Assembly: GCA_021166845.1 (NCBI GenBank)
Contig: JAJPEP010000058.1
Coordinates: 1 to 39,501, forward strand
Length of the DNA: 39,501 nt
Origin: Thiobacillus sp.
Lineage (GTDB): Bacteria > Pseudomonadota > Gammaproteobacteria > Burkholderiales > Thiobacillaceae
Direction of reading: 5' to 3'
The notes beneath the pieces are model-generated. The model searched no databases, was not told where the DNA came from, and worked only from the letters and a program-made list of their open reading frames with translations. The translations under genes were made by a program, and so were the position numbers. Shown in pieces: positions 1 through 39,044 of the stretch; the first letter of the stretch is position 1, and every line of letters begins with the position of its first letter.

Positions 1-114
1 TAGGAGCGGCTTCAGCCGCGATGCGGGCGGTAGCCCGCAAAGGTGGCGCGGCAAGACCCTGGCGAGCATTTGCTCTTTGCGCCTTGCGGCGCATCGCGGC
101 TGAAGCCGCTCCTA
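1..114. repeat. REP-like long hairpin
   Basis: Two 24-nt arms at 1-24 and 91-114 are perfect reverse complements and enclose a 66-nt loop. The core GCGGCTTCAGCCGC is itself nearly palindromic, so each arm can also fold alone. This is the form of a paired REP element (BIME). It lies downstream of the rpsT terminator and contains no credible gene. The left arm starts at the window edge, so the element may extend further. Confidence 0.75.
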
Positions 115-3276: not shown

Positions 3277-6069
3277 ATGCCCGACTATAAAAACACCCTC
3301 AACCTGCCCGACAGCCCCTTCCCGATGCGCGGCGACCTCGCCAGGCGCGAGCCGGGCTGGGTCAAGAGCTGGCAGGAAAAAAAGCGCTACGAAGCCATCC
3401 GCCGTGCCGCGGCCGGGCGCCCCAAGTTCATCCTGCACGACGGCCCGCCCTACGCCAACGGCGACATCCACATCGGCCACGCGGTCAACAAGATCCTCAA
3501 GGACATCATCGTCAAGGCCAAAACCCTGAGCGGTTTCGATGCGCCCTACGTGCCGGGCTGGGACTGCCACGGCCTGCCGATCGAATTGCAGGTTGAAAAA
3601 ACCCACGGCAAGGCCATCGCCCCGGCAAAATTCCGCGAACTGTGCCGTGAATACGCGACGGCGCAGATCGAGCGGCAGAAGGCCGACTTCATCCGCCTCG
3701 GCGTGCTGGGCGACTGGGACAATCCTTATCGCACCATGGACTTCCAGTTCGAGGCCGACACCCTGCGCGTGCTGGGGCAGATCCAGGCGGCCGGCTATCT
3801 GTATCAGGGCGCCAAGCCGGTGCACTGGTGCGTCGACTGCGGCTCGGCGCTGGCCGAGGCCGAGGTCGAGTACGAGGACAAGACCTCGCCGGCGATCGAC
3901 GTCGGTTTTGCCGTGGCCGACCGCGCCGACCTCGCGCGCCGCTTCGACATTGCGACGATCGACGAGCCGATCCAGGTCGTCATCTGGACCACCACGCCGT
4001 GGACGCTGCCGGCCAACCAGGCGGTGGCGCTGCACCCCGATTTCCAGTACGCGCTGGTGCGAACGGCCAAGGGCCTCTTGATCCTGGCCGAAAGCCTGCG
4101 CGAGGCGGCGCTGACACGTTACGGCTTGAATGAAGGCGCCGAAGTCATTGCGCACACCACCGGCCAGGCGCTCGAAGGCGTGCTGCTGTGGCACCCGTTC
4201 CAGCAGCGCGAGGTTCCGATCATCGTGGGCGACCACGTCACCGCGGATGCCGGCACCGGCGCGGTGCATACCGCGCCCGGTCACGGCCTCGACGACTACG
4301 TCGTCGGCAGCCGCTACGGTTTGAAGGTCGATAACCCGGTGGGCGACGACGGGCGTTTTTACGACAGCGTGCCGTTGGTCGGCGGCATGAGCATCTGGCA
4401 GGCGAATCCGCTGATTCTGGACACGCTCGAAGCCAGCGGCAACCTGCTGGCGCACGAGAAACTGCTGCACAGCTACCCGCATTGCTGGCGCCACAAGACG
4501 CCGATCATTTTCCGCGCGACGCGGCAGTGGTTCATCGGGATGGATTCCAGGGGTCAGGGATCAGGGGTGAGGGGTCAGGAGGGCTCGTTGCGCGAGCAGG
4601 CGATGGCGGCGGTCGAGGCGACTCAATTCTTTCCCTCGTGGGGGCGTGCCCGGCTGGAGGCGATGATCAAAAATCGTCCCGACTGGTGCGTGTCGCGCCA
4701 GCGCAACTGGGGGGTGCCGATGCCCTTCTTCACCCACAAGGAAACCGGCGAACTGCACCCGCGCACGGCGGAGCTGCTGGAAACCGTGGCGAAGCGGGTC
4801 GAAGCCGCCGGCATCGAGGCCTGGTTCGCGCTCGAACCGTCCGAGTTGCTGGGCGAGGACGCCGCGCACTACAACAAGACCGGCCATACGCTCGACGTCT
4901 GGTTCGATTCGGGCGTGACGCACGCCTGCGTGCTGAAGCGCCGCCCCGAGCTGGCCCACCCCGCGGACCTCTACCTTGAAGGCTCCGACCAGCATCGCGG
5001 CTGGTTCCAGTCGTCCCTGCTCACCGGCTGCGCCACCGACGGCCGTGCGCCCTACAAAGCCCTGCTCACCCACGGCTTCGTGGTCGACGGCCGCGGCCAC
5101 AAGATGAGCAAGTCGAAGGGCAACGTCGTCGCGCCGCAGAAGGTAATGGACCAATACGGCGCCGACATCCTGCGCCTGTGGGTGGCCACCACCGACTATT
5201 CGGGCGAGCTCACCATCTCGGACGAAATCCTCAAGCGCGTAGTGGAAGGCTACCGGCGCATCCGCAACACGCTGAAATTCCTGCTTGCCAACCTGTCGGA
5301 CTTCGATCCCAAGGCACACGCGCTGCCAGTTGATGACTGGCTGGAAATCGACCGCTATGCGCTGGCGATGACGCGAAAACTGCAGGGCGAACTGCAGGCG
5401 CATTACGACGCCTACGAATTCCACTTCATCGTGCAGAAGCTGCAATCTTTCTGCTCCGAAGACCTCGGCGGCTTCTACCTCGACATCCTGAAGGACCGCC
5501 TGTACACCAGCGGCGCCGACAGCCGCGCCCGCCGTGCCGCGCAGAACGCGTTGTTCCACATTACCCAGGCCCTTACCCGCTGGATGGCGCCGATCCTGTC
5601 GTTCACCGGCGAGGAAGTGTGGGGTGAACTCTCGGGCAGTTCGGACGATTCGGTGTTCCTGCATACCTGGCACGAACTGCCCGCGCAGGCCGGCGAAGCC
5701 GATCTTCTGGATCGCTGGACCCGCATTCGCGCCATCCGCGCCGAGGTGCAGAAAGAGCTGGAGACCGTGCGCGTCGCCGGTGCCATCGGCTCGTCGCTGC
5801 AGGCCGAAGTCACGCTCCAGACCGGTCCCGACACCCTGGCCCTGCTGGCGCCGCTGGGCGACGACCTCCGCTTCGTGCTGATCACCTCGCAGGCACAGAT
5901 CGTCGCGGCCGATACCGACCACGTTGAAGTTGCCCCGAGCGCAGCGAAGAAATGCGAGCGCTGCTGGCATTACCGCGACGACGTCGACGCCCACGCAGAC
6001 CACCCCGGCCTGTGCGGACGCTGCGTCAGCAACCTCTACGGCGACGGCGAAGCGCGCACGCATGCCTGA
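3277..6069 (+). CDS. ileS: Isoleucyl-tRNA synthetase
   Basis: The 930-residue class I synthetase charges tRNA-Ile. HIGH is at residues 65-68 and KMSKS at 609-613. The central editing domain contains [12 protein letters not shown], and the C-terminal zinc knuckle uses C893, C896, C913 and C916. The length is normal for the long bacterial form. Oddity: just after the conserved WFIGMD, at about residues 425-437, there is a short Gly/Gln/Arg-rich stretch ([13 protein letters not shown]). It is encoded by a degenerate TCAGGGG repeat, and I do not expect it in relatives. The frame stays open and all active-site motifs follow, so the gene should be functional. It lies between ribF and lspA. Confidence 0.97.
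4548..4582 (+). repeat. In-frame TCAGGGG repeat inside ileS
   Basis: About 35 nt consist of four degenerate copies of a GGGTCAGG / GGATCAGG unit on one strand, giving a strong purine/pyrimidine bias unlike the surrounding codons. The encoded residues are Gly, Gln, Arg and Ser. The position falls between the conserved WFIGMD block and the AMAAVEAT helix of the synthetase. The repeat keeps the reading frame. It differs in type from the palindromes inside thiO and the ELM1-like gene. Confidence 0.7.
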
Positions 6070-6079
6070 CGCATCAGCC

Positions 6080-6159
6080 GTCATTGCGAGCGCAGCGAAA
6101 CAATCCAGCGCTTCGAACGGCCTGCGGTTTCTGGATTGCTTCGCTGCGCTCGCAATGAC
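6080..6159. repeat. Palindromic repeat, family A (intergenic)
   Basis: Two 29-nt arms (6080-6108 and 6131-6159) are reverse complements with one mismatch, around a 22-nt loop. The arm begins GTCATTGCGAGCGCAGCGAA and ends CAATCCAG. Related arms occur at 9893-9921, 20171-20199 (in thiO), 22686-22715 (in the ELM1-like gene) and 39016-39044. It fills most of the ileS-lspA spacer and could act as an attenuating hairpin. Confidence 0.85.
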
Positions 6160-6712: not shown

Positions 6713-7146
6713 CCGATCGCGCCGTCGCCGCGGGCGACACCCTCCAACTCCGCTATGCCTTGCGCCCGCGCGGCGGCGACGACCTCATCTCCAACTTCGA
6801 CGATGCCGAACCGGACACCGTGACGCTCGGCGACGGCACCCTGGCGCCGATGCTGGAGCAATGGCTGATCGACATCCACCCCGGCGAGCGCCATGTATTC
6901 CTGCTCGACCCCTGGCAGGCCTTTGGCGAAAGCCAGCCCGACCTGGTCCAGACCCTGCCGAAATCCGACCTGCCAACCGATATGAAATTCGAGATCGACC
7001 AGCTGTTCGAATTCGCCATGCCCAACGGCCAGACCCTGGCCGGCCGCATCCTGGAAATCGGCGGCGACGCGGTGAAAGTCGACTTCAACCATCCGCTCGC
7101 CGATCTGTGCATCGAATTCGAAGTGGAAATCGAACGCATCCTGTAG
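6709..7146 (+). CDS. fkpB: FKBP-type peptidyl-prolyl isomerase (SlpA/FkpB)
   Basis: The 145-residue product is a small SlyD/SlpA-like FKBP with the inserted flap (IF) domain. It acts as a cytosolic prolyl isomerase and chaperone. LQLRYALR, a DGTLAPMLEQWLIDIHPGE segment and the C-terminal VDFNHPLADL / EFEVEIERIL strands match the family. The ATG at 6709 overlaps the lspA stop (ATGA). In relatives ispH usually follows at once. Here about 1.7 kb intervenes, and a diverged copy of the last 27 codons of this gene recurs at 8171-8251. Confidence 0.93.
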   Translation: MTDRAVAAGDTLQLRYALRPRGGDDLISNFDDAEPDTVTLGDGTLAPMLEQWLIDIHPGERHVFLLDPWQAFGESQPDLVQTLPKSDLPTDMKFEIDQLFEFAMPNGQTLAGRILEIGGDAVKVDFNHPLADLCIEFEVEIERIL

Positions 7147-7270
7147 CGCCTGCCCGCGGGAACCCGTGCCTGTGCCATGGCTGAAACGAGCAGCCCGGAA
7201 GCGCTAAACCAGGAGACCGCTGATTAATTCGTCATCGCGAGGTTCGCAGAGCCGTGGCGATCCACGGTGC

Positions 7271-7327
7271 GTAGGGTGCACTTCGTGCACCGATTGGCGC
7301 CTGATAGGTGCACGGAGTGCACCCTAC
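7271..7327. repeat. Inverted repeat, family B (GTAGGGTGCAC), copy 1
   Basis: The outer arms GTAGGGTGCACTTCGTGCACC and its complement enclose a short spacer, forming a long cruciform-capable palindrome. Each arm is itself palindromic around GTGCAC. Further copies lie at 20991-21046 and 25492-25546. Confidence 0.85.
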
Positions 7328-7360
7328 TCGATGCATCTCGCGCTTAATGGCGCCATTGCG

Positions 7361-7477
7361 AAGAGCGCAGCGACGTGGCATACGACTCCACGGGCTTCAG
7401 CCCATAGCGGATCGGAGTCCTTTAGGGCAATCCAGAAATGCCCGCTTAATCAATACGCTGGATTTTCGCTGCGCTCG
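7361..7477 (-). repeat. Long dispersed repeat, family C, copy 1
   Basis: Read on the minus strand, this segment matches 9900-10020 with roughly 90 percent identity and a few short gaps (aligned by eye). The shared core includes CCCTAAAGGACTCCGATCC and a hairpin around GGGCTGAAGCCC. A shorter piece recurs near 21107-21122. The two long copies are in inverted orientation and bracket ispH and its flanking toxin-antitoxin genes. Confidence 0.8.
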
Positions 7478-8113: not shown

Positions 8114-8251
8114 ATGACCCCCACCATTCTTCTCGCCAACCCCCGCGGACTCTGTTCCGGCGTCGACCGCGATGCGGTGAAGATCGACTTCGACCATCCG
8201 CTCGCTGGCCTGGCGATTGAACTCGAAGTGGAAATCGCCCGCATCCTGTGA
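8114..8251 (+). pseudogene. Chimeric remnant: ispH 5' end joined to fkpB 3' end
   Basis: A 45-codon open frame starts with 19 codons matching the start of ispH ([19 protein letters not shown], against [18 protein letters not shown] in the real gene). It continues in frame with 26 codons matching the end of fkpB (AVKIDFDHPLAGLAIELE, then VEIARIL and stop). The fkpB part is about 80 percent identical in DNA to 7066-7146. The order ispH'-then-fkpB' is what the joint of a tandem duplication of the fkpB-ispH junction would leave. It lacks all catalytic residues of either enzyme, so function is unlikely. Confidence 0.85.
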
Positions 8252-8606: not shown

Positions 8607-8862
8607 ATCCGTCCGCAAGGAACTGGCGGCGCTGGCCGCCAAGCCGGAACACGAAATCGACTTATCCGACCTTCCGGCCACAACCGAGAAAGACTGGCAC
8701 GACGCGACGCGCGGAAAATTCTATCGCCCGATCAAACAGCAATTGACCGTACGCATCGATGCTGACGTGCTGGAATGGTTGAAGAGTCAAGGCAAGGGCT
8801 ATCAAAGCCGCCTGAACGAGATTTTGCGGGCGGCCATGCTCGACAAGGAACGGCATCAGTGA
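8590..8862 (+). CDS. brnA: BrnA-family antitoxin, abutting ispH
   Basis: The 90-residue product has the BrnA C-terminal ribbon-helix-helix: [20 protein letters not shown] followed by [12 protein letters not shown]. This is a dimeric DNA-binding fold that normally represses the brnTA promoter and binds BrnT. AAAGGAAAATTT precedes the ATG. Its stop TGA (8860-8862) overlaps the GTG start of ispH (8859-8861), so ispH translation may be coupled to this antitoxin. The partner toxin upstream carries a nonsense codon, leaving the antitoxin as an orphan. Confidence 0.88.
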
Positions 8863-9785
8863 CTCCCACCATTCTTCTCGCCAACCCCCGCGGCTTCTGC
8901 GCCGGCGTCGACCGTGCCATCGCCATCGTCGAGTCGGCGCTTGCAAAATTCGGCGCGCCGATCTACGTGCGGCACGAAGTCGTCCACAATACCTACGTCG
9001 TCAACAACCTCAAGGCCAAGGGCGCGATCTTCGTCGAAGAACTCGACGAGGTCCCCACCGGCGCTACTGTCATCTTCAGCGCGCACGGCGTGTCGCAGGC
9101 GGTACGCATGGAGGCCGAGGCGCGCGGGCTGAACGTATTCGACGCCACCTGCCCGCTGGTCACCAAGGTGCACGTCGAAGTCAGCAAGATGCGCGGCAAG
9201 GGACTGGAAATCGTGATGATCGGCCACAAGGGTCACCCTGAAGTCGAGGGCACCCTGGGCCAGTCGAGCGGCGGCATGTACCTGGTCGAAACACCGGAAG
9301 ACGTCGCCAGCCTGCAGGTGACCGACCCCGACAAGCTCGCCTACGTCACCCAGACCACGCTGTCCGTCGACGATGCCGCGCGCGTGGTCGATGCCCTGCG
9401 CGCGCGCTTCCCCAACATCGCCGGACCGAAAAAGGACGACATCTGCTACGCCACGCAAAACCGCCAGGATGCCGTCAAGGCGCTGGCGCCGCAGTGCGAT
9501 GTGGTGATCGTGGTGGGCTCGCCCACCAGTTCGAACTCCAACCGGCTGCGGGAAGTTGCGAAGAACCTGGACGTAGCGGCCTACATGGTCGACAACGCGT
9601 CGGAAATCCAGCCCGAGTGGGTGGCGGGAAAAGACCGGGTCGGGCTCACGGCTGGCGCCTCGGCCCCGGAAATTCTGGTGCGCGCGGTGATCGAGCGGTT
9701 GAGTGAACTTGGAATCGGCTCGGTGGAAAATCTCGACGGCGCCGAGGAAAAAGTGGCGTTCGCCCTGCCGAAAGGCCTGGCTTGA
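8859..9785 (+). CDS. ispH: 4-hydroxy-3-methylbut-2-enyl diphosphate reductase (IspH)
   Basis: The 308-residue iron-sulfur enzyme catalyses the last step of the MEP pathway, reducing HMBPP to IPP and DMAPP. The three cluster cysteines are in [25 protein letters not shown] and [14 protein letters not shown]. The conserved [17 protein letters not shown] and [11 protein letters not shown] motifs are present. The start is GTG at 8859, with AAGGAA about 8 nt upstream. A longer frame from 8775 would run inside brnA and is rejected. The gene is complete and probably essential, yet its start is embedded in the brnA stop. A terminator follows at 9825. Confidence 0.95.
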
Positions 9786-9857: not shown

Positions 9858-9899
9858 AAACCTAAAAGAGCGCTGATTCATTCGATATGGCTGTCATTG

Positions 9900-10020
9900 C
9901 GAGCGCAGCGAAGCAATCCAGCGTATTGATCAAACGGGCATTTCTAAATTGCCCTAAAGGACTCCGATCCACTATGGGCTGAAGCCCACGTGGAATCGTA
10001 TGCCGCGTCGCTGCGCTCCT
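9900..10020 (+). repeat. Long dispersed repeat, family C, copy 2
   Basis: This is the inverted partner of 7361-7477. It is preceded directly by a family A arm (9893-9921), which partly overlaps it. The 9786-10139 spacer holds only the ispH terminator, this element, a GGTAGCGTCC palindrome and the brnTA promoter. I see no gene there. Confidence 0.8.
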
Positions 10021-10062
10021 CGCCCAGGCAGCGTCAAGCCTCGGGGCAACGCGCTCGCTGAG

Positions 10063-11613: not shown

Positions 11614-11682
11614 CAATGACTCGGCGCGCTCAATAAGCCAAGCCTGACAACAGGCGTAAAAGGGGCCTCCAGACATAAGCTC

Positions 11683-11772
11683 GCCACCGTCATCTTCAGC
11701 GCGCACGGCGTGTCGCAGGCGGTTCGCGAAGAAGCTGGGGCGCGCGGGCTGAACGTGTTCGGCGCCACTTGT
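11683..11772 (+). pseudogene. Internal fragment of ispH
   Basis: Thirty codons ([20 protein letters not shown] then [10 protein letters not shown]) match ispH 9063-9152 at about 85 percent DNA identity, same orientation, ending exactly at the second cluster Cys before a stop. Sequence on either side is unrelated to ispH. It is a piece of a diverged ispH copy, not a simple recent duplicate of the gene at 8859. The surrounding 11614-11886 stretch holds no other gene. Confidence 0.85.
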
Positions 11773-19720: not shown

Positions 19721-20962
19721 GTGCAGCCTGTGCGTGAGGCAGCTGCACCGGGTTTGAAGGCGTCCACTGTCATCCTGGGCGCGGGCATCTCGGGCCTGAG
19801 CGCCGCGCTGGCTTTATTGCAGCACGGCCACCGGGTGACGGTGCTGGAACGCGGCGCCGTGGGCGGCGAGTCGTCCTGGGCGGGGGGCGGGATTCTCTCG
19901 CCGTTGCTGCCGTGGGGTTACACGGAGGCGGTTTCGGCGCTGGCCTTGCGGTCGATGGCGGGCTATGCGGACTGGGTGGCGGGAATCGAGGCGCTATCGG
20001 GGCGGGATGCGGAATTCTGGCGCTGCGGGATGCTGGCGCTGGAGGTGGCTGATCCGGAGCAGGCGATGGCATGGTGTGCAACGCACGGGATGCCGGCGGA
20101 GGCCTTCAGGCTGGGGGCGACACATCTGGCGTTCGATTCACTTAAAGCAGCGCTAAAAAACTCACCCTCCGTCATTGCGAACGAAGTGAAGCAATCCAGC
20201 GTGTCGGCGAAATCGAAGGCTTCCGGATCGCCGCACGGAATTGTTCCGTGCATTCCTGAAGAAAATCATATCTGGCTGCCCGGCATCGCGCAGGTGCGCA
20301 ATCCGCGCCTGGTGGCGGCTTTGCGCGCGGCGGTGGTGCAACTGGGCGGGGTGATACGCGAGCACTGCCCGGCCACCGGGGTGCTGACACAGGGCGGACG
20401 GGTGACGGCGGTGCGGACGGCAGCGGAAACTTTTCCGGCGGACAGCGTGGTGCTGGCAACCGGGGCGTGGTCGGGGCTGGGGCTGGCCGGGCTGGCGGCG
20501 ACGCCAAACGTTCGCCCGGTTCGCGGGCAGATGCTGCTGTTCAAGCTGGCGCCGGGCGTGCTGGATACGATTGTGTATCGCAACGGGCTGTATCTGATTC
20601 CGCGCCGGGACGGCCATGTGCTGGTGGGCAGCACGCTGGAGGACGCCGGTTTCGACAAATCGACCGACGACGCCACGCGCCGGCGCCTGCACGCCGAGGC
20701 GGCCGAACTGCTGCCCGCGCTGGCAGCCATTCAACCGGTGCGGCACTGGGCCGGCTTGCGCCCCGGTTCGCCGGACAATATCCCGGTGATCGACCGGCAT
20801 CCGGATTTCGGGAACGTGTTCGTCAACACGGGACATTACCGCTACGGGGTAACGCTGGCGCCCGCCGCGGCGGAACTGCTGGTCGATTTGATGGAAGGCA
20901 AGGCGCCGGCACTGGATCCTGCGCCATATCGCTGGCAGGCCGCTTTGGATCGGCATTGGTGA
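19721..20962 (+). CDS. thiO: FAD-dependent glycine oxidase ThiO, with inserted repeat
   Basis: The 413-residue DAO-family flavoenzyme has GxGxxG in VILGAGISGLSAALAL (about 17-32) and an ESSWAGGGILSPLLPW segment typical of ThiO. The C-terminal block GLRPGSPDNIPVIDRHPDFG is followed by NTGHYRYGVTLAPAAAELL. ThiO oxidises glycine to the imine needed for the thiazole of thiamine. At about residues 151-180 the frame runs through a family A repeat (VIANEVKQSS...SGSPHG), adding roughly 30 residues just before the conserved GIAQVRNPRL block. Family length is nearer 360-370. GTG at 19721 is the assumed start; GTG 19730 is possible. It is divergent from fimT, with no other thi gene in the window. Confidence 0.88.
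   Translation: MQPVREAAAPGLKASTVILGAGISGLSAALALLQHGHRVTVLERGAVGGESSWAGGGILSPLLPWGYTEAVSALALRSMAGYADWVAGIEALSGRDAEFWRCGMLALEVADPEQAMAWCATHGMPAEAFRLGATHLAFDSLKAALKNSPSVIANEVKQSSVSAKSKASGSPHGIVPCIPEENHIWLPGIAQVRNPRLVAALRAAVVQLGGVIREHCPATGVLTQGGRVTAVRTAAETFPADSVVLATGAWSGLGLAGLAATPNVRPVRGQMLLFKLAPGVLDTIVYRNGLYLIPRRDGHVLVGSTLEDAGFDKSTDDATRRRLHAEAAELLPALAAIQPVRHWAGLRPGSPDNIPVIDRHPDFGNVFVNTGHYRYGVTLAPAAAELLVDLMEGKAPALDPAPYRWQAALDRHW
20171..20256 (+). repeat. Family A palindromic repeat inserted in frame in thiO
   Basis: The arm at 20171-20199 (GTCATTGCGAACGAAGTGAA then GCAATCCAG) is the same element as at 6080 and 9893. The right part contains CCGGATCGCCGCACGG and a perfect 8-bp hairpin (GCACGGAA, TTCCGTGC). 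The element has no in-frame stop and keeps the thiO frame open. The encoded VIANEVKQSS differs in composition from the rest of the protein. Confidence 0.85.
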
Positions 20963-20990
20963 TCCGGGATTGTTCATTATTCGGAGTAAC

Positions 20991-21046
20991 GTAGGGTGCA
21001 CTCCGTGCACCTTCCGGCGTAAATCGGTGCACGGAGTGCACCCTAC
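20991..21046. repeat. Inverted repeat, family B, copy 2
   Basis: GTAGGGTGCACTCCGTGCACC and its complement surround a 14-nt spacer. It is nearly identical to 25492-25546 and close to 7271-7327. It sits 28 nt after thiO and could end its transcript. A short piece of family C (ATTGCCCTAAAGGACT, about 21103-21118) follows. Confidence 0.88.
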
Positions 21047-21123
21047 CCGCAAACGCGACGCCTGTATAAATGGAGCGCATCGATCAAGCAGTCAGTTCCG
21101 GATTGCCCTAAAGGACTTCGATC

Positions 21124-21153
21124 TTGACGTACACCGGAATGTACGCTTACATT
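21124..21153 (+). promoter_or_regulatory. Promoter with internal operator for phd-vapC
   Basis: TTGACG (21124-21129) and TACATT (21148-21153) are 18 nt apart. An inverted repeat CGTACA...TGTACG (21128-21145) fills the spacer. This arrangement would let the Phd-type antitoxin repress its own promoter. Confidence 0.6.
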
Positions 21154-21182
21154 GACATCATTATGTTCATTCAGCTAACGCC

Positions 21183-21419
21183 ATGAAACAAGCCACCTTG
21201 ACCGAAGTCCGCAACAACGCCAAACAGTATTTCGACATCGTTGAGTCTGGCGAATCCGTGCGCGTGCTGCGCAACGGCAAACCCATCGCCGACATCGTTC
21301 CCGTGTCGACTGACCTGCCTTCCTGGAAGCGGCGCCGCGCACAACCCCTGGTGCTTGACGGCGTATCGGTCAGCCGCATGATTCTCGAAGAGCGCGAAGC
21401 GGAGAAGCTGTCGGGCTGA
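21183..21419 (+). CDS. Phd/YefM-type antitoxin
   Basis: The 78-residue product begins MKQATLTEVRNNAKQYFDIV and contains GESVRVLRNGKPIADIVPV, the standard Phd/YefM fold in which the N-terminal half dimerises and binds the operator. The C-terminal tail (RMILEEREAEKLSG) should neutralise the partner. Its stop overlaps the toxin ATG by one base. A clear promoter/operator lies upstream. The pairing with a PIN toxin makes this a Phd-VapC hybrid module, as is common. Confidence 0.88.
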   Translation: MKQATLTEVRNNAKQYFDIVESGESVRVLRNGKPIADIVPVSTDLPSWKRRRAQPLVLDGVSVSRMILEEREAEKLSG

Positions 21420-21832
21420 TGCGTGTTTTTTTCGATTCCTCGGCTTTCGTAAAGCGCTATATCAGCGAAACCGGAACCGATGCCGTACTGGCGTGGTGCG
21501 ATCAGGCGACAGAAATCGGCCTGTCCGGCATTGCGTTGCCCGAGATTGTTTCGGCCTTTTGCCGCTTGCACCGGGAAACCCGGATCACCGAAGCCCAATA
21601 CCGACAACTGAAATCCCTGCTGCTGGCCGATATCGAAGACGCCGCCATTTGCGACCTGACCCCGGCAGTGCTGGCGCAGGCGGTGTCGAGCCTCGAAACC
21701 AATATCCTGCGCGGCATGGACGCCATTCATATCGGCAGTGCGCTAGCCTTGAACGCCGATGTGTTCGTCTCTGCCGACACGCGACAGATCCAGGCCGCCG
21801 CTCGCGCAGGATTGCGGGTAGAGACGGTGTAG
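21419..21832 (+). CDS. vapC: PIN-domain toxin VapC
   Basis: The 137-residue PIN ribonuclease starts MRVFFDSSAFVKRYISETGT, with the first catalytic Asp in FDSSA. A Glu follows in ALPEIVSAF, then Asp in RGMDAIHIGSAL and Asp in FVSADTRQ. All four acidic positions of a PIN active site are present, so it should be active, typically cleaving tRNA or rRNA. It is coupled to the preceding antitoxin. Confidence 0.9.
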   Translation: MRVFFDSSAFVKRYISETGTDAVLAWCDQATEIGLSGIALPEIVSAFCRLHRETRITEAQYRQLKSLLLADIEDAAICDLTPAVLAQAVSSLETNILRGMDAIHIGSALALNADVFVSADTRQIQAAARAGLRVETV

Positions 21833-21913
21833 CTCAACCCAGCCAAGCCACTCGCTTCATTTCATGCCGAATCAATAGGATAATCAGCGCGTCCAGCCAC
21901 CCGCTCACCCGCC

Positions 21914-22489
21914 ATGTCGCAAGCTCATGTCCATTCGCCTGTCGATGAAGCCGCTTATCTGCGTGGGGAAGAAACCGCGACCTCGAAACACGAGTTTGTG
22001 GGCGGCGAGATCTACGCCATGGCGGGGGCAAGCGAGCGGCACAACCGCATTGCGCTCAACATCGCTTTTCATCTGCGCAGCGCCACACGCGGCAAGCCTT
22101 GCCGCGCTTTCATGGCGGACATGAAGCTGCGACTGGCGGGTGGCACAACCTACTACTATCCGGACGCCATGCTGGTATGCGACCCGGCCGACGATCACCC
22201 CCTCTACAAGCAATCCCCCTGCCTCATCGCCGAGGTGCTGTCCCCCGCCACCGCCACGGTGGACGTGCGCGAGAAATGGACGGCTTATCGCGGGCTGGCC
22301 AGCCTGCGCTATTACCTGCTGGTGGATTCCGAACGGCTGTGGGCCAGGGTCTTCTTTCGCGACGAGCACGACGCCTGGTTCGAGCAGGAGTTGTCTGCCG
22401 AAGACCGTGTCGACGTGGTATGCGACGGCGCCAGGCTGACGCTGACGCTGGACGACCTGTACGAGGACACGGGGCTGCTCGTTGTCTGA
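21914..22489 (+). CDS. Uma2 family (DUF820) putative endonuclease
   Basis: The 191-residue product has the Uma2 restriction-endonuclease-like fold: KHEFVGGEIYAMAGASERHN near residue 25, then YYYPDAMLVCD and CLIAEVLSPATATVDVREKW with the PD...ExL...K arrangement of PD-(D/E)xK enzymes. Uma2 proteins are common in cyanobacteria and some proteobacteria and their role is unknown. The ATG at 21914 is 81 nt after vapC. Its 3' end overlaps the TTG start of the ELM1-like gene by 8 nt, suggesting cotranscription. Confidence 0.85.
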   Translation: MSQAHVHSPVDEAAYLRGEETATSKHEFVGGEIYAMAGASERHNRIALNIAFHLRSATRGKPCRAFMADMKLRLAGGTTYYYPDAMLVCDPADDHPLYKQSPCLIAEVLSPATATVDVREKWTAYRGLASLRYYLLVDSERLWARVFFRDEHDAWFEQELSAEDRVDVVCDGARLTLTLDDLYEDTGLLVV

Positions 22490-23564
22490 GGCGGCCGGCA
22501 AGCGTTCGCCGCTGATCGTCTGGATCGTCAGCGACGGCAAGCCGGGGCACGTCAATCAGTCGCGGGGGCTGGCCGAGGCGCTGGCGCGCGCAACCCCCAC
22601 CGAGATTCATACCCTCCGCGCCCTGCCGCGCTGGCGCGCCTGGCTGGCGCTTCTGCTGAAAACAAGGCTGAATCCCTCATGCTTCGTCGTTGCGAGCGAA
22701 GCGAAGCAATCCAGGATGCTTGCAGATGCGGCAACTTCTGGATCGCCACAGCCCTTCGGGCCTCGCGATGACGAGATCAACCAGCGCTCGCGCAACGCGC
22801 CAGACACTCCCCTTCCTAAACCCGATCTGATCATCGGCGCAGGTCACGCCACCCACCCGACGCTGCTGGCCGCACGGCGCGCGCACGGCGGCCGCGCAGT
22901 GGTGCTGATGAAGCCGAGCCTGCCGCGTCGCTGCTTCGACCTGTGCATTCTTCCCCGGCACGATGGCGTTGCGGCGGACGCGCATACGCTGGTGACCGAT
23001 GGCGCGCTGAACCGCGTCCGCCCGGCGACGACAAGCGATGCGAACCACGGTTTGATTCTGATCGGCGGCGCCTCGCCGCATTTCGAATGGGACAGCGACG
23101 CCGTCCAGGCGCAGATCAAGCGCATCCTCGCGCGCACGCCCGACATGCAGTGGACGCTGACCACATCGCGCCGCAGCCCGAAGGATTTTCTGGCGCTGCT
23201 GCCGCGGCATCCCAGGCTGAACATCGTCCCCCACACCGCCACCTCGCCCGACTGGCTGCCCGAACAACTGGCGCGATGCGGCACGGTGTGGGTGACGCCC
23301 GACAGCGCCTCGATGGTGTTCGAGGCATTGACGGCGGGCGCCGATGTCGGCGTGTTCGACCTGCCGGCCAACCCGAAAAGCCGCGTCGGCCGTGCGATTG
23401 CCCAGCTCGCCGAGTCGCAGCGCATCACCCGCTTCGCGAACTGGTGCGCGAACGATCAATTGCAGCCCAACACGCACCCGTTGGCCGAAGCGGATCGCTG
23501 TGCGCAAAGCATCCTGCAACGCTGGTTTGATGCGCATCAAACCCAGGCTGCATCCAGACGATGA
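22482..23564 (+). CDS. ELM1-family putative glycosyltransferase, with inserted repeat
   Basis: The 360-residue product belongs to the bacterial mitochondrial-fission ELM1 family (GT-B-like). It shows VWIVSDGKPGHVNQSRGLAE at the N-terminus, LIIGAGHATHPTLLAARRAH and VVLMKPSLPRRCFDLCI. Near the C-terminus, CGTVWVTPDSASMVFEALTA resembles a nucleotide-sugar site. Position next to glycosyltransferases supports an envelope-glycan role, but the substrate is unknown. A family A repeat is read in frame at about residues 69-98 (VVASEAKQSR...SGSPQPFG), so the protein is some 30-40 residues longer than expected. The start is TTG 22482, overlapping the Uma2 gene, and is uncertain. Confidence 0.8.
   Translation: MSEAAGKRSPLIVWIVSDGKPGHVNQSRGLAEALARATPTEIHTLRALPRWRAWLALLLKTRLNPSCFVVASEAKQSRMLADAATSGSPQPFGPRDDEINQRSRNAPDTPLPKPDLIIGAGHATHPTLLAARRAHGGRAVVLMKPSLPRRCFDLCILPRHDGVAADAHTLVTDGALNRVRPATTSDANHGLILIGGASPHFEWDSDAVQAQIKRILARTPDMQWTLTTSRRSPKDFLALLPRHPRLNIVPHTATSPDWLPEQLARCGTVWVTPDSASMVFEALTAGADVGVFDLPANPKSRVGRAIAQLAESQRITRFANWCANDQLQPNTHPLAEADRCAQSILQRWFDAHQTQAASRR
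22686..22773 (+). repeat. Family A repeat inserted in frame in the ELM1-like gene
   Basis: The left arm (22686-22715) starts GTCGTTGCGAGCGAAGCGAA and ends CAATCCAGG. The right arm (22737-22773) carries GGATCGCCACAGCCC and CTTCGGGCCTCGCGATGACG, the second arm type of this family (compare 7229-7265). There is no in-frame stop; conserved ELM1 sequence resumes after about ten more codons. Confidence 0.87.
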
Positions 23565-25491: not shown

Positions 25492-25546
25492 GTAGGGTGC
25501 ACTCCGTGCACCTTCAGGCGTCAATCGGTGCACGGAGTGCACCCTG
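25492..25546. repeat. Inverted repeat, family B, copy 3
   Basis: This is the same palindrome as at 20991-21046, 18 nt after the GT4 stop. It probably serves as a terminator-like hairpin. The rest of the 25474-25731 spacer shows a weak GCCTG...CAGGC hairpin near 25637 and no supportable gene. Confidence 0.87.
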
Positions 25547-39015: not shown

Positions 39016-39044
39016 CCGGATTGCTTCGCGTTGCTCGCAATGGC
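39016..39044 (-). repeat. Family A repeat arm between hisG and murA
   Basis: CCGGATTGCTTCGCGTTGCT then CGCAATGGC is the complement of the GTCATTGCGAGCG...CAATCCAG arm, with a GTGGCGATCCAGG segment nearby (about 38980-38992). It fills the murA-hisG spacer. Confidence 0.7.

What the first reader, a model, noticed from the sequence alone, without database searches (positions are those of the whole stretch)
20171..22773. Palindromic repeats read in frame inside thiO and an ELM1-like gene
The element that is intergenic at 6080-6159 and 9893-9921 also occurs inside two conserved genes, 2.5 kb apart (20171-20256 and 22686-22773). In both it keeps the reading frame, has no stop in that frame, and adds about 30 residues (VIANEVKQSS..., VVASEAKQSR...) between conserved blocks. 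The two genes read the left arm in the same frame, giving nearly the same peptide (V-x-A-x-E-x-K-Q-S). This recalls the Rickettsia palindromic elements that enter proteins, but the sequence family and host group are different. Selection for one tolerated frame is the interesting possibility.
Basis: partly seen in the sequence, partly recalled or inferred. Interest (0 to 1): 0.85.

Follow-up and report, generated by a model that had tools for sequence, protein, structure and literature searches.

The report
Mobile palindromes translated inside Thiobacillus genes
Two ordinary genes of a sulfur-oxidising bacterium carry a small piece of jumping DNA that happens to fit the reading frame, so the gene still reads through it as extra, probably floppy, amino acids.

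Summary
Both genes carry a palindromic repeat, in frame and stop-free, that most sampled relatives lack. Net insertion is 131+4=135 bp, exactly 45 codons, so it is frame-neutral anywhere. Of two subfamilies only B has a stop-free consensus, in one of six frames. That largely explains, passively, why both genes give nearly the same peptide. Some diverged copies are open in other frames, so a residual preference is not excluded. Host ThiO is under purifying selection (dN/dS 0.18); its insert is nearly neutral (0.72). Both inserts model as disordered and have lost the palindrome fold. The same frame recurs inside an acyl-ACP-synthetase-like protein, SucB and PepN, and near the start of phosphoketolase and BioH. 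In-frame CGTC repeats, including Rickettsia RPE-4/RPE-6, are known. The Thiobacillus cases and the IS5-type vehicle, a candidate for the transposase these repeats were said to lack, were not seen in my limited literature searches. Translation is unproven.

The parts
19721..20962 (+). thiO, glycine oxidase, host gene of insert 1
   Evidence: PF01266 224 bits; TIGR02352 272.5 bits over a cut-off of 250.8
20142..20145 (+). TTAA, left copy of the YTAR target duplication
   Evidence: directly 5' of the element
20146..20255 (+). MITE remnant (subfamily B) inside thiO, right part shortened and changed, ThiO residues about 142-178
   Evidence: start anchored on the 131-bp unit, end placed by eye; same site by eye in 8 of 47 ThiO sequences; single-strand DNA fold of 20146-20276 z 0.17, palindrome lost
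20171..20199 (+). short CGTC-REP arm, read VIANEVKQS
   Evidence: A8-T14 variant of the inner hairpin pair
20256..20259 (+). CTGA, probable decayed right copy of the target duplication
   Evidence: placed by eye against CTAA+AGAAAA in L371
22482..23564 (+). ELM1-family gene (Mito_fiss_Elm1), host gene of insert 2
   Evidence: PF06258 243.6 bits
22661..22791 (+). MITE remnant (subfamily B, 131 bp) inside the ELM1-family gene, residues about 60-104
   Evidence: orthologous insert in G003, absent in 28 of 30 loci; fold z 0.22; no target duplication recognisable
22686..22714 (+). short CGTC-REP arm, read VVASEAKQS
22739..22773 (+). long CGTC-REP arm, opposite orientation, read SGSPQPFGPRDD
6080..6159 (.). 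intergenic CGTC-REP dimer just after a 930-aa ORF that ends at 6069 (probably ileS, recalled, not scanned), intact palindrome
   Evidence: 29-nt arms, 97% complementary; fold z -9.95
7213..7465 (-). composite intergenic copy, inverted relative to 9866-10039
   Evidence: inverted repeats I1 and I3; terminal repeat at 7213
9866..10039 (+). intergenic long-form copy, CTAA directly 5', terminal repeat (4 mismatches) at 9866
39019..39040 (-). diverged arm near the window end
   Evidence: 2 mismatches

Best explanation
Each insert is an old copy of a 131-bp non-autonomous element moved by an IS5-family transposase. The element has GGAARCRCTGATTNATTC-type ends and a core of two facing CGTC-tagged REP hairpins. 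It goes into YTAR and duplicates those 4 bp, so a gene gains 135 bp = 45 codons and stays in frame wherever it is hit. Of the six ways to read the subfamily B consensus only one has no stop, codons x-YT|AR-G in the orientation with the short arm first, read (K/R)ETLINS..VIASEAKQS..SGSPRPCGPRDDGINQRF(P/L). Fresh insertions that survive in genes therefore tend to share peptide and frame. They persist where the protein tolerates a disordered loop and then decay by substitution and in-frame length change while purifying selection keeps the rest of the gene. Shown: element structure, duplications, partner IS, empty sites, open-frame counts, dN/dS. Inferred: the transposition reaction, that the peptide is made, that the loop is harmless.
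For: 77 sequence-distinct units with both terminal repeats, 46 of exactly 131 bp; 43 of 77 with identical 4-bp flanks, 38 of them YTAR. Partner IS with a PF01609-type transposase and ends 2 to 5 mismatches from the 18-nt query: complete copies in L458 (1214 bp, CTAA both sides) and L459 (1229 bp, CTAG both sides). B consensus: 0 stops in one frame, 1-5 in the others; A: at least 1 in all six; 17 of 21 B copies are open end to end in that frame. Empty sites for ThiO and ELM1 and the acyl-ACP-synthetase-like gene. Of 20 long ORFs through the repeat that were scanned, 8 of 9 in the VIA frame have Pfam domains and 0 of 11 in other frames. ThiO dN/dS 0.72 insert, 0.18 rest. Insert pLDDT below 50 in both models.
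Against: The transposase was not found at E up to 1e-20 in the window's genome, G006 or G002, where copies are numerous; the window's genome is 86% complete and insertion sequences assemble badly (recalled). ELM1 keeps no recognisable duplication. ThiO carriers need 6 changes on the tree (2 forced), so one gain with several losses is not proven. The frame rule holds for the consensus, not every copy: of 46 131-bp copies 18 are open in the VIA phase and 2, 2 and 1 in three other frames; of 38 B copies without flanks 27 are open in the VIA frame and 10, 1, 6 and 6 in four others. SucB and PepN carry single arms without terminal repeats, so the rule does not explain their frame. No proteomic data. 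My confidence was 0.85 before I set these counts against the claim.
Confidence: 0.8

Rival explanations
1. The element is under selection to be readable: subfamily B kept an open frame because copies that could sit harmlessly in genes survived and seeded new copies.
For: 27 of 38 B copies with an 87-nt core are open in the one frame, against 18.7 (sd 3.0) in a simulation from the consensus; 7 of 2000 runs reach 27. B copies differ by 23% on average and 17 of 21 full-length ones still share the frame. Other frames are open in some copies (10, 1, 6 and 6 of 38), yet the five internal genic cases all use the VIA frame, two of them single arms without terminal repeats.
Against: The 38 include genic copies and orthologous pairs, so they are not independent. 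Substitutions are flat over codon positions (296/341/342). Among private substitutions 1 stop was seen against 1.74 expected. Subfamily A has the same 131-bp length but no open frame in its consensus, so length alone shows no coding selection.
Confidence: 0.18
2. The insert peptide does something useful for ThiO and the ELM1-family protein.
For: Kept in 8 distinct ThiO sequences of the genus; pooled insert dN/dS is slightly under 1 (0.72).
Against: Insert dN/dS is about four times that of the rest (single-pair pN/pS 0.51 to 1.21), length is fluid (33 to 56 residues over a 17-residue loop), near relatives of carriers lack it, model disordered, and the same peptide sits in unrelated proteins.
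Confidence: 0.05
3. The two genes are decaying pseudogenes that happen still to be open.
For: A decayed second thiO stretch exists in G002 and thiO fragments in G006.
Against: Rest of ThiO has pooled dN/dS 0.18 across 28 carrier pairs; full-length domain matches; glycine oxidase fold in the model, top hit 4ysh, TM 0.74; carriers in several genomes, each held as a different species.
Confidence: 0.03
4. The hairpins are moved by a REP-associated tyrosine transposase (RAYT), as proposed for GTAG REPs, and the outer repeats are chance.
For: Y1_Tnp matches occur in 33 of 40 genomes of the genus.
Against: No CGTC arm (up to 4 substitutions) lies in any of the 30 Y1_Tnp loci held, which are part of the matches listed; the outer repeats have a fixed distance and YTAR duplications and match an IS5-family element.
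Confidence: 0.05

Closest known systems
CGTC-tagged REPs (Di Nocera et al. 2013, PMC3733652; abstract, sections 6, 7, 14, 15, 17 and passages read)
   Same: CGTC/TGTC tag, stem beginning A-T, CCA tail, opposed dimers, some inside ORFs; dimers or grouped repeats coding 20-30 aa are reported there
   Different: The paper has no word beginning Thiobacillus (0 hits) and says the repeats seem to lack a dedicated transposase. It notes one case of dimers inside a 41-bp palindrome (H. neapolitanus) without calling it IS ends. My hairpin has 5+2 pairs and a GNA triloop, not a plain 8-9 bp stem.
[quoted passage not shown] Ogata 2002 not held, Ogata 2000 and 2002 seen only as cited)
   Same: Palindrome read in frame inside conserved genes, solvent-exposed regions, orthologues share the site, ATGAC motif, similar length
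   Different: Thiobacillus instead of Rickettsia; a defined IS5-type vehicle with target duplications; the frame largely follows from stop codons
IS5-family MITEs (general kind; YTAR duplication recalled)
   Same: Short, non-autonomous, terminal repeats matching an autonomous IS5-family element, 4-bp duplication
   Different: Cargo is a CGTC-REP dimer; no sequence shared with the IS beyond the ends (by eye)
Coxiella QMITE1/QMITE2 (PMC5896051, passages read)
   Same: A MITE family (QMITE2) whose short forms are REP elements; protein ends changed by insertion
   Different: Longer direct repeats (7-11 nt) for QMITE2; in the table rows seen the insert ends the protein with a stop

Membership tests
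MITE of the IS5 family | terminal inverted repeats at fixed spacing | tested here: met
   77 units, 46 of 131 bp
MITE of the IS5 family | 4-bp YTAR target duplication | tested here: met
   38 of 77 units have identical YTAR flanks, 5 more have other identical flanks; that YTAR marks IS5 elements is recalled
MITE of the IS5 family | autonomous partner with same ends and a DDE transposase | tested here: met
   L414, L458, L459
MITE of the IS5 family | mobilised in trans by that transposase | not testable with these tools
   needs a cell assay
CGTC-tagged REP | CGTC (or TGTC) tag, A-T first stem pair, CCA tail | tested here: met
   arm listing against the criteria
CGTC-tagged REP | 8-9 bp stem and 4-5 nt loop | tested here: inconclusive
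   5 outer + 2 inner pairs with a GNA triloop; the inner pair covaries (A-T for G-C in 12 of 250 arms, 1.1 expected; 74 unique arms, Fisher p 0.0015). The DNA fold of one arm showed only the 5 outer pairs. The paper's figure of consensus sequences is not held.
CGTC-tagged REP | reported property: not associated with transposase genes | tested here: inconclusive
   no arm in the 30 Y1_Tnp loci held, in line with the paper; but the dimers ride between IS5-type ends
Rickettsia palindromic element (RPE) | in-frame insertion in conserved genes at sites empty in relatives | tested here: met
Rickettsia palindromic element (RPE) | found in Rickettsia | tested here: not met
   closest named relatives are mostly Thiobacillus; so it works like an RPE but is not filed as one
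Rickettsia palindromic element (RPE) | match to a curated RPE peptide model | tested here: not met
   0 NCBIfam families for both insert peptides at E up to 10; that NCBIfam holds RPE models is recalled

The most novel reading that the evidence does not exclude
CGTC REPs, long without a known transposase, spread as cargo of IS5-type MITEs, and subfamily B became a 'frame-neutral' element: unit plus duplication is exactly 45 codons and one orientation and phase is free of stops, so that copies landing in genes add a tolerated loop instead of a knock-out, and selection has kept it so.
Probability: 0.2. Interest if true: 0.8.

Novelty: new variant of a known kind. Interest (0 to 1): 0.58.

Why it matters
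Protein-coding palindromes are best known from Rickettsia (recalled, and PMC10969869 passages). Here empty and filled sites, target duplications, complete copies of a partner IS and a simple stop-codon rule for the frame are all visible in one genus outside Rickettsia. It also offers a candidate answer to how CGTC REPs move, which PMC3733652 left open. Both points are testable in E. coli K-12.

Tried and rejected
Rfam scan of the window: 0 matches. Literature search for the arm sequence: 8 papers, all judged unrelated from titles and abstract starts. RAYT as vehicle: rejected, see rivals. A 2-bp TA duplication was considered first and dropped when the outer bases of the 133-bp unit proved to be part of YTAR. 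Long ORFs in other frames through the repeat looked like genes but none of the 11 scanned had a Pfam domain; 7 further other-frame rows of the 33 were not scanned. FolC, MltB and NHL cases were first counted as genic; in each the repeat lies before the domain homology, and in the last two before a signal-peptide-like stretch read by eye, so they are not counted as internal. One VIA-frame ORF (L302) had no Pfam or NCBIfam match. Six further B-copy ORFs were scanned for gene-end cases; phosphoketolase and a phospholipase D ORF matched, four did not. BioH empty sites could not be checked. ELM1 fold search gave only weak GT-B-like hits (query TM 0.32 to 0.53 among the 50 listed). Plasmid search: 6 records of Novosphingobium, Methylosinus and Methylobacterium, none covering 80% of the unit. 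In one search two of five ranges (L062, L371) were misplaced (shown) and are not used. Stop-depletion test: see rival 1. On rereading my calls I lowered the main confidence from 0.85 to 0.8 and raised rival 1 from 0.15 to 0.18, because copies open in other frames had been left out.
Full report
What was checked. The window is contig C98 of a 3.22-Mb, 115-contig genome, 86% complete and 6% contaminated; the closest named relatives of its thiO are mostly labelled Thiobacillus or Hydrogenophilales MAGs. Genome-wide there are 41 arms at up to 2 mismatches, none with the reversed pattern. Both host ORFs are full-length members of their families.

Empty sites. In an alignment of 30 same-genus loci each, the ELM1 insert is present only in the window and in G003; the ThiO insert is in the window, G006, G002 and G007. 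In a wider set of 67 ThiO sequences, 47 of them distinct, 8 of 47 carry it, all at the same point and in the same frame by eye. The tree needs 6 changes, 2 forced by well-supported branches, so one gain with several losses fits but is not proven. The G003 ELM1 protein is exactly 45 residues longer than that of G006 at this point, the window's 44 (counted). ThiO of G063 (L371) is +45 over a 17-residue loop, but the loop varies in length even when empty (4 to 21 residues).

What the unit is. Context of the arms showed an outer repeat. Pairing the outer repeats gave units of mostly 133 bp whose first and last base belong to a 4-bp duplication. With that correction there are 77 sequence-distinct units, 46 of 131 bp; 43 of 77 have identical 4-bp flanks, 38 of these YTAR. 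Of 20 stretches fetched by terminal repeat alone, 9 hold a 131-bp pair, all 9 with matching YTAR flanks; they came in before the count of 77 was made and are not independent of it. A PF01609 transposase gene in G004 starts right inside the same kind of terminal repeat. A search with it found relatives in 10 of 56 genus genomes at E up to 1e-20, not in the window's genome, G006 or G002. L458 and L459 hold complete elements of 1214 and 1229 bp with CTAA and CTAG on both sides; their ends are 2-3 and 2-5 mismatches from the 18-nt query; L458 has a 338-residue frame. Further in I saw no similarity between unit and IS. The unit is therefore an IS5-type MITE carrying a CGTC-REP dimer.

The hairpin. 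Within each short arm ATTGC-GA-GC-GNA-GC-GAA-GCAAT, the inner pair 8-14, left free by my search pattern, is G-C in 226 of 250 arms and A-T in 12, against 1.1 A-T expected if the sides were independent; on 74 unique arms Fisher p is 0.0015. The loop is GNA in 224 of 250, though the pattern favoured G and A there. That d(GCGNAGC) hairpins are very stable is recalled; the DNA fold of the window's ThiO arm showed only the five outer pairs, z -0.95. Whole-unit single-strand DNA folds are strong for copies outside known genes (z -9.95 at 6080-6159, -4.60 and -2.32 for L297 and L157), weaker in the acyl-ACP-synthetase-like copy (-1.63) and gone in the window's ThiO (0.17) and ELM1 (0.22) copies. So in these two genes the frame is kept while the palindrome is not.

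Why one frame. The 131-bp copies fall into A (24 copies, mean pairwise difference 0.119) and B (21 copies, 0.234; one of these reads like A, and one site is present twice as orthologues); the one remaining copy was not assigned. With YTAR on both sides, the A consensus has at least one stop in every one of six frames. The B consensus has none in a single frame and 1 to 5 in the rest; 17 of 21 B copies are open in it. In the other two codon phases of that orientation the terminal repeat (TGA) or the duplication itself (TAR) gives a stop. This gives the VIASEAKQS frame without an appeal to selection. The rule is for the consensus: of all 46 131-bp copies 18 are open in this phase and 2, 2 and 1 in three others; of 38 B copies, taken without flanks, 27 are open in it and 10, 1, 6 and 6 in four others. 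Both subfamilies have the same length, so the mod-3 fit is not evidence of coding selection. A simulation expects 18.7 (sd 3.0) open B copies against 27 seen, with 7 of 2000 runs as high, but the set includes genic and orthologous copies. Substitutions are flat across codon positions, and private substitutions gave 1 stop against 1.74 expected. I read selection on the element as unproven.

How often it happens. Among 250 unique short arms, 33 stop-free frames (all six frames searched) span the repeat with at least 60 residues on both sides: 15 in the VIA frame and 18 in others. The VIA rows include 4 ThiO and 2 ELM1. I scanned the other 9 VIA rows and 11 of the 18 others: 8 of 9 and 0 of 11 have Pfam domains. 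Looking closer, the repeat is internal in a PP-binding/AMP-binding protein, acyl-ACP synthetase by my reading (shared by G000 and G006, absent in the 5 other homologues aligned, in a variable linker; a distant sixth was not aligned), in SucB between lipoyl and catalytic domains and in PepN (profile covers both sides; these two are single arms). It is near the start of BioH (flanks CTAA/CTAA) and of phosphoketolase (CCAA/CCAA), the latter found in a list restricted to the VIA frame. In FolC, MltB and an NHL protein it probably lies before the true start. All five internal cases (ThiO, ELM1, acyl-ACP synthetase, SucB, PepN) use the VIA frame. For the two single arms the terminal-repeat rule does not apply, and their frame stays unexplained.

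Effect on the protein. Pooled over 28 non-independent carrier pairs, ThiO has dN/dS 0.72 in the insert and 0.18 elsewhere; single-pair pN/pS in the insert runs from 0.51 to 1.21. AlphaFold2 models, from 28 and 30 sequences, give mean pLDDT 76.1 and 81.5. Residues 147-177 of ThiO and 68-107 of ELM1 are below 50; ThiO has other low stretches (1-10, 47-55, 133-135, 309-312), ELM1 only 1-4. The ThiO model still matches glycine oxidase (4ysh, TM 0.74). ThiO is functional by selection, and both inserts look like tolerated loops. I did no dN/dS for ELM1.

What is known. PMC3733652 (abstract, sections 6, 7, 14, 15 and 17 and passages read) describes CGTC REPs, in-frame copies in genes, the identity of RPE-4 and RPE-6 with CGTC-4 and CGTC-1, and the apparent lack of a dedicated transposase. 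Rickettsia japonica work (abstract and passages) gives the ATGAC motif and solvent-exposed sites for RPE-4/6/7. Searches listed no paper that I recognised, from titles and abstract starts, as linking CGTC REPs to an IS5-type element or as describing this in Thiobacillus: 5 of 5 papers listed; 20 of 34; 20 of 1,488; none of the 20 held the word Thiobacillus; 20 of 25; 20 of 21; 20 of 62. The library is open-licence only, so this is weak evidence of absence. Verdict: real, largely explained, a new variant of a known kind.

Noticed in passing
window 1-25 and 90-114: Perfect 25-nt inverted repeat TAGGAGCGGCTTCAGCCGCGATGCG, looks like a GTAG-type REP pair.
   Followed up: no
window 7255-7330, 20991-21044, 25492-25545: A second REP-like family (GTAGGGTGCACTCCGTGCACC and its complement), also found directly after a CGTC arm elsewhere in the genome (L018).
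   Followed up: no
window 8115-8249 and 11682-11771: Partial copies (82-91% identical) of stretches at 7058-7144, 8860-8914 and 9062-9151, apparently decayed duplicates of neighbouring genes.
   Followed up: no
window 21184-22489: Between the two host genes lie an antitoxin-like ORF (by eye, not scanned), a PIN-domain gene and a Uma2 gene; G006 has the same block before its ELM1 gene.
   Followed up: partly
G002:C43:203225-203728 and G006:C64:193-484: Extra decayed or partial thiO copies; the G002 stretch has five stops and a CGTC arm inside it (203401-203423).
   Followed up: no
arms in L006, L161, L174, L324: Many single short arms are followed by another repeat ending like GTTGGCCGGGGGTAGCCCGGCGGCTAGT, a second vehicle or composite element.
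   Followed up: no
L344:492-2024: A phospholipase D-domain ORF of 511 residues ends four codons into a B copy, so the element supplies its stop.
   Followed up: partly
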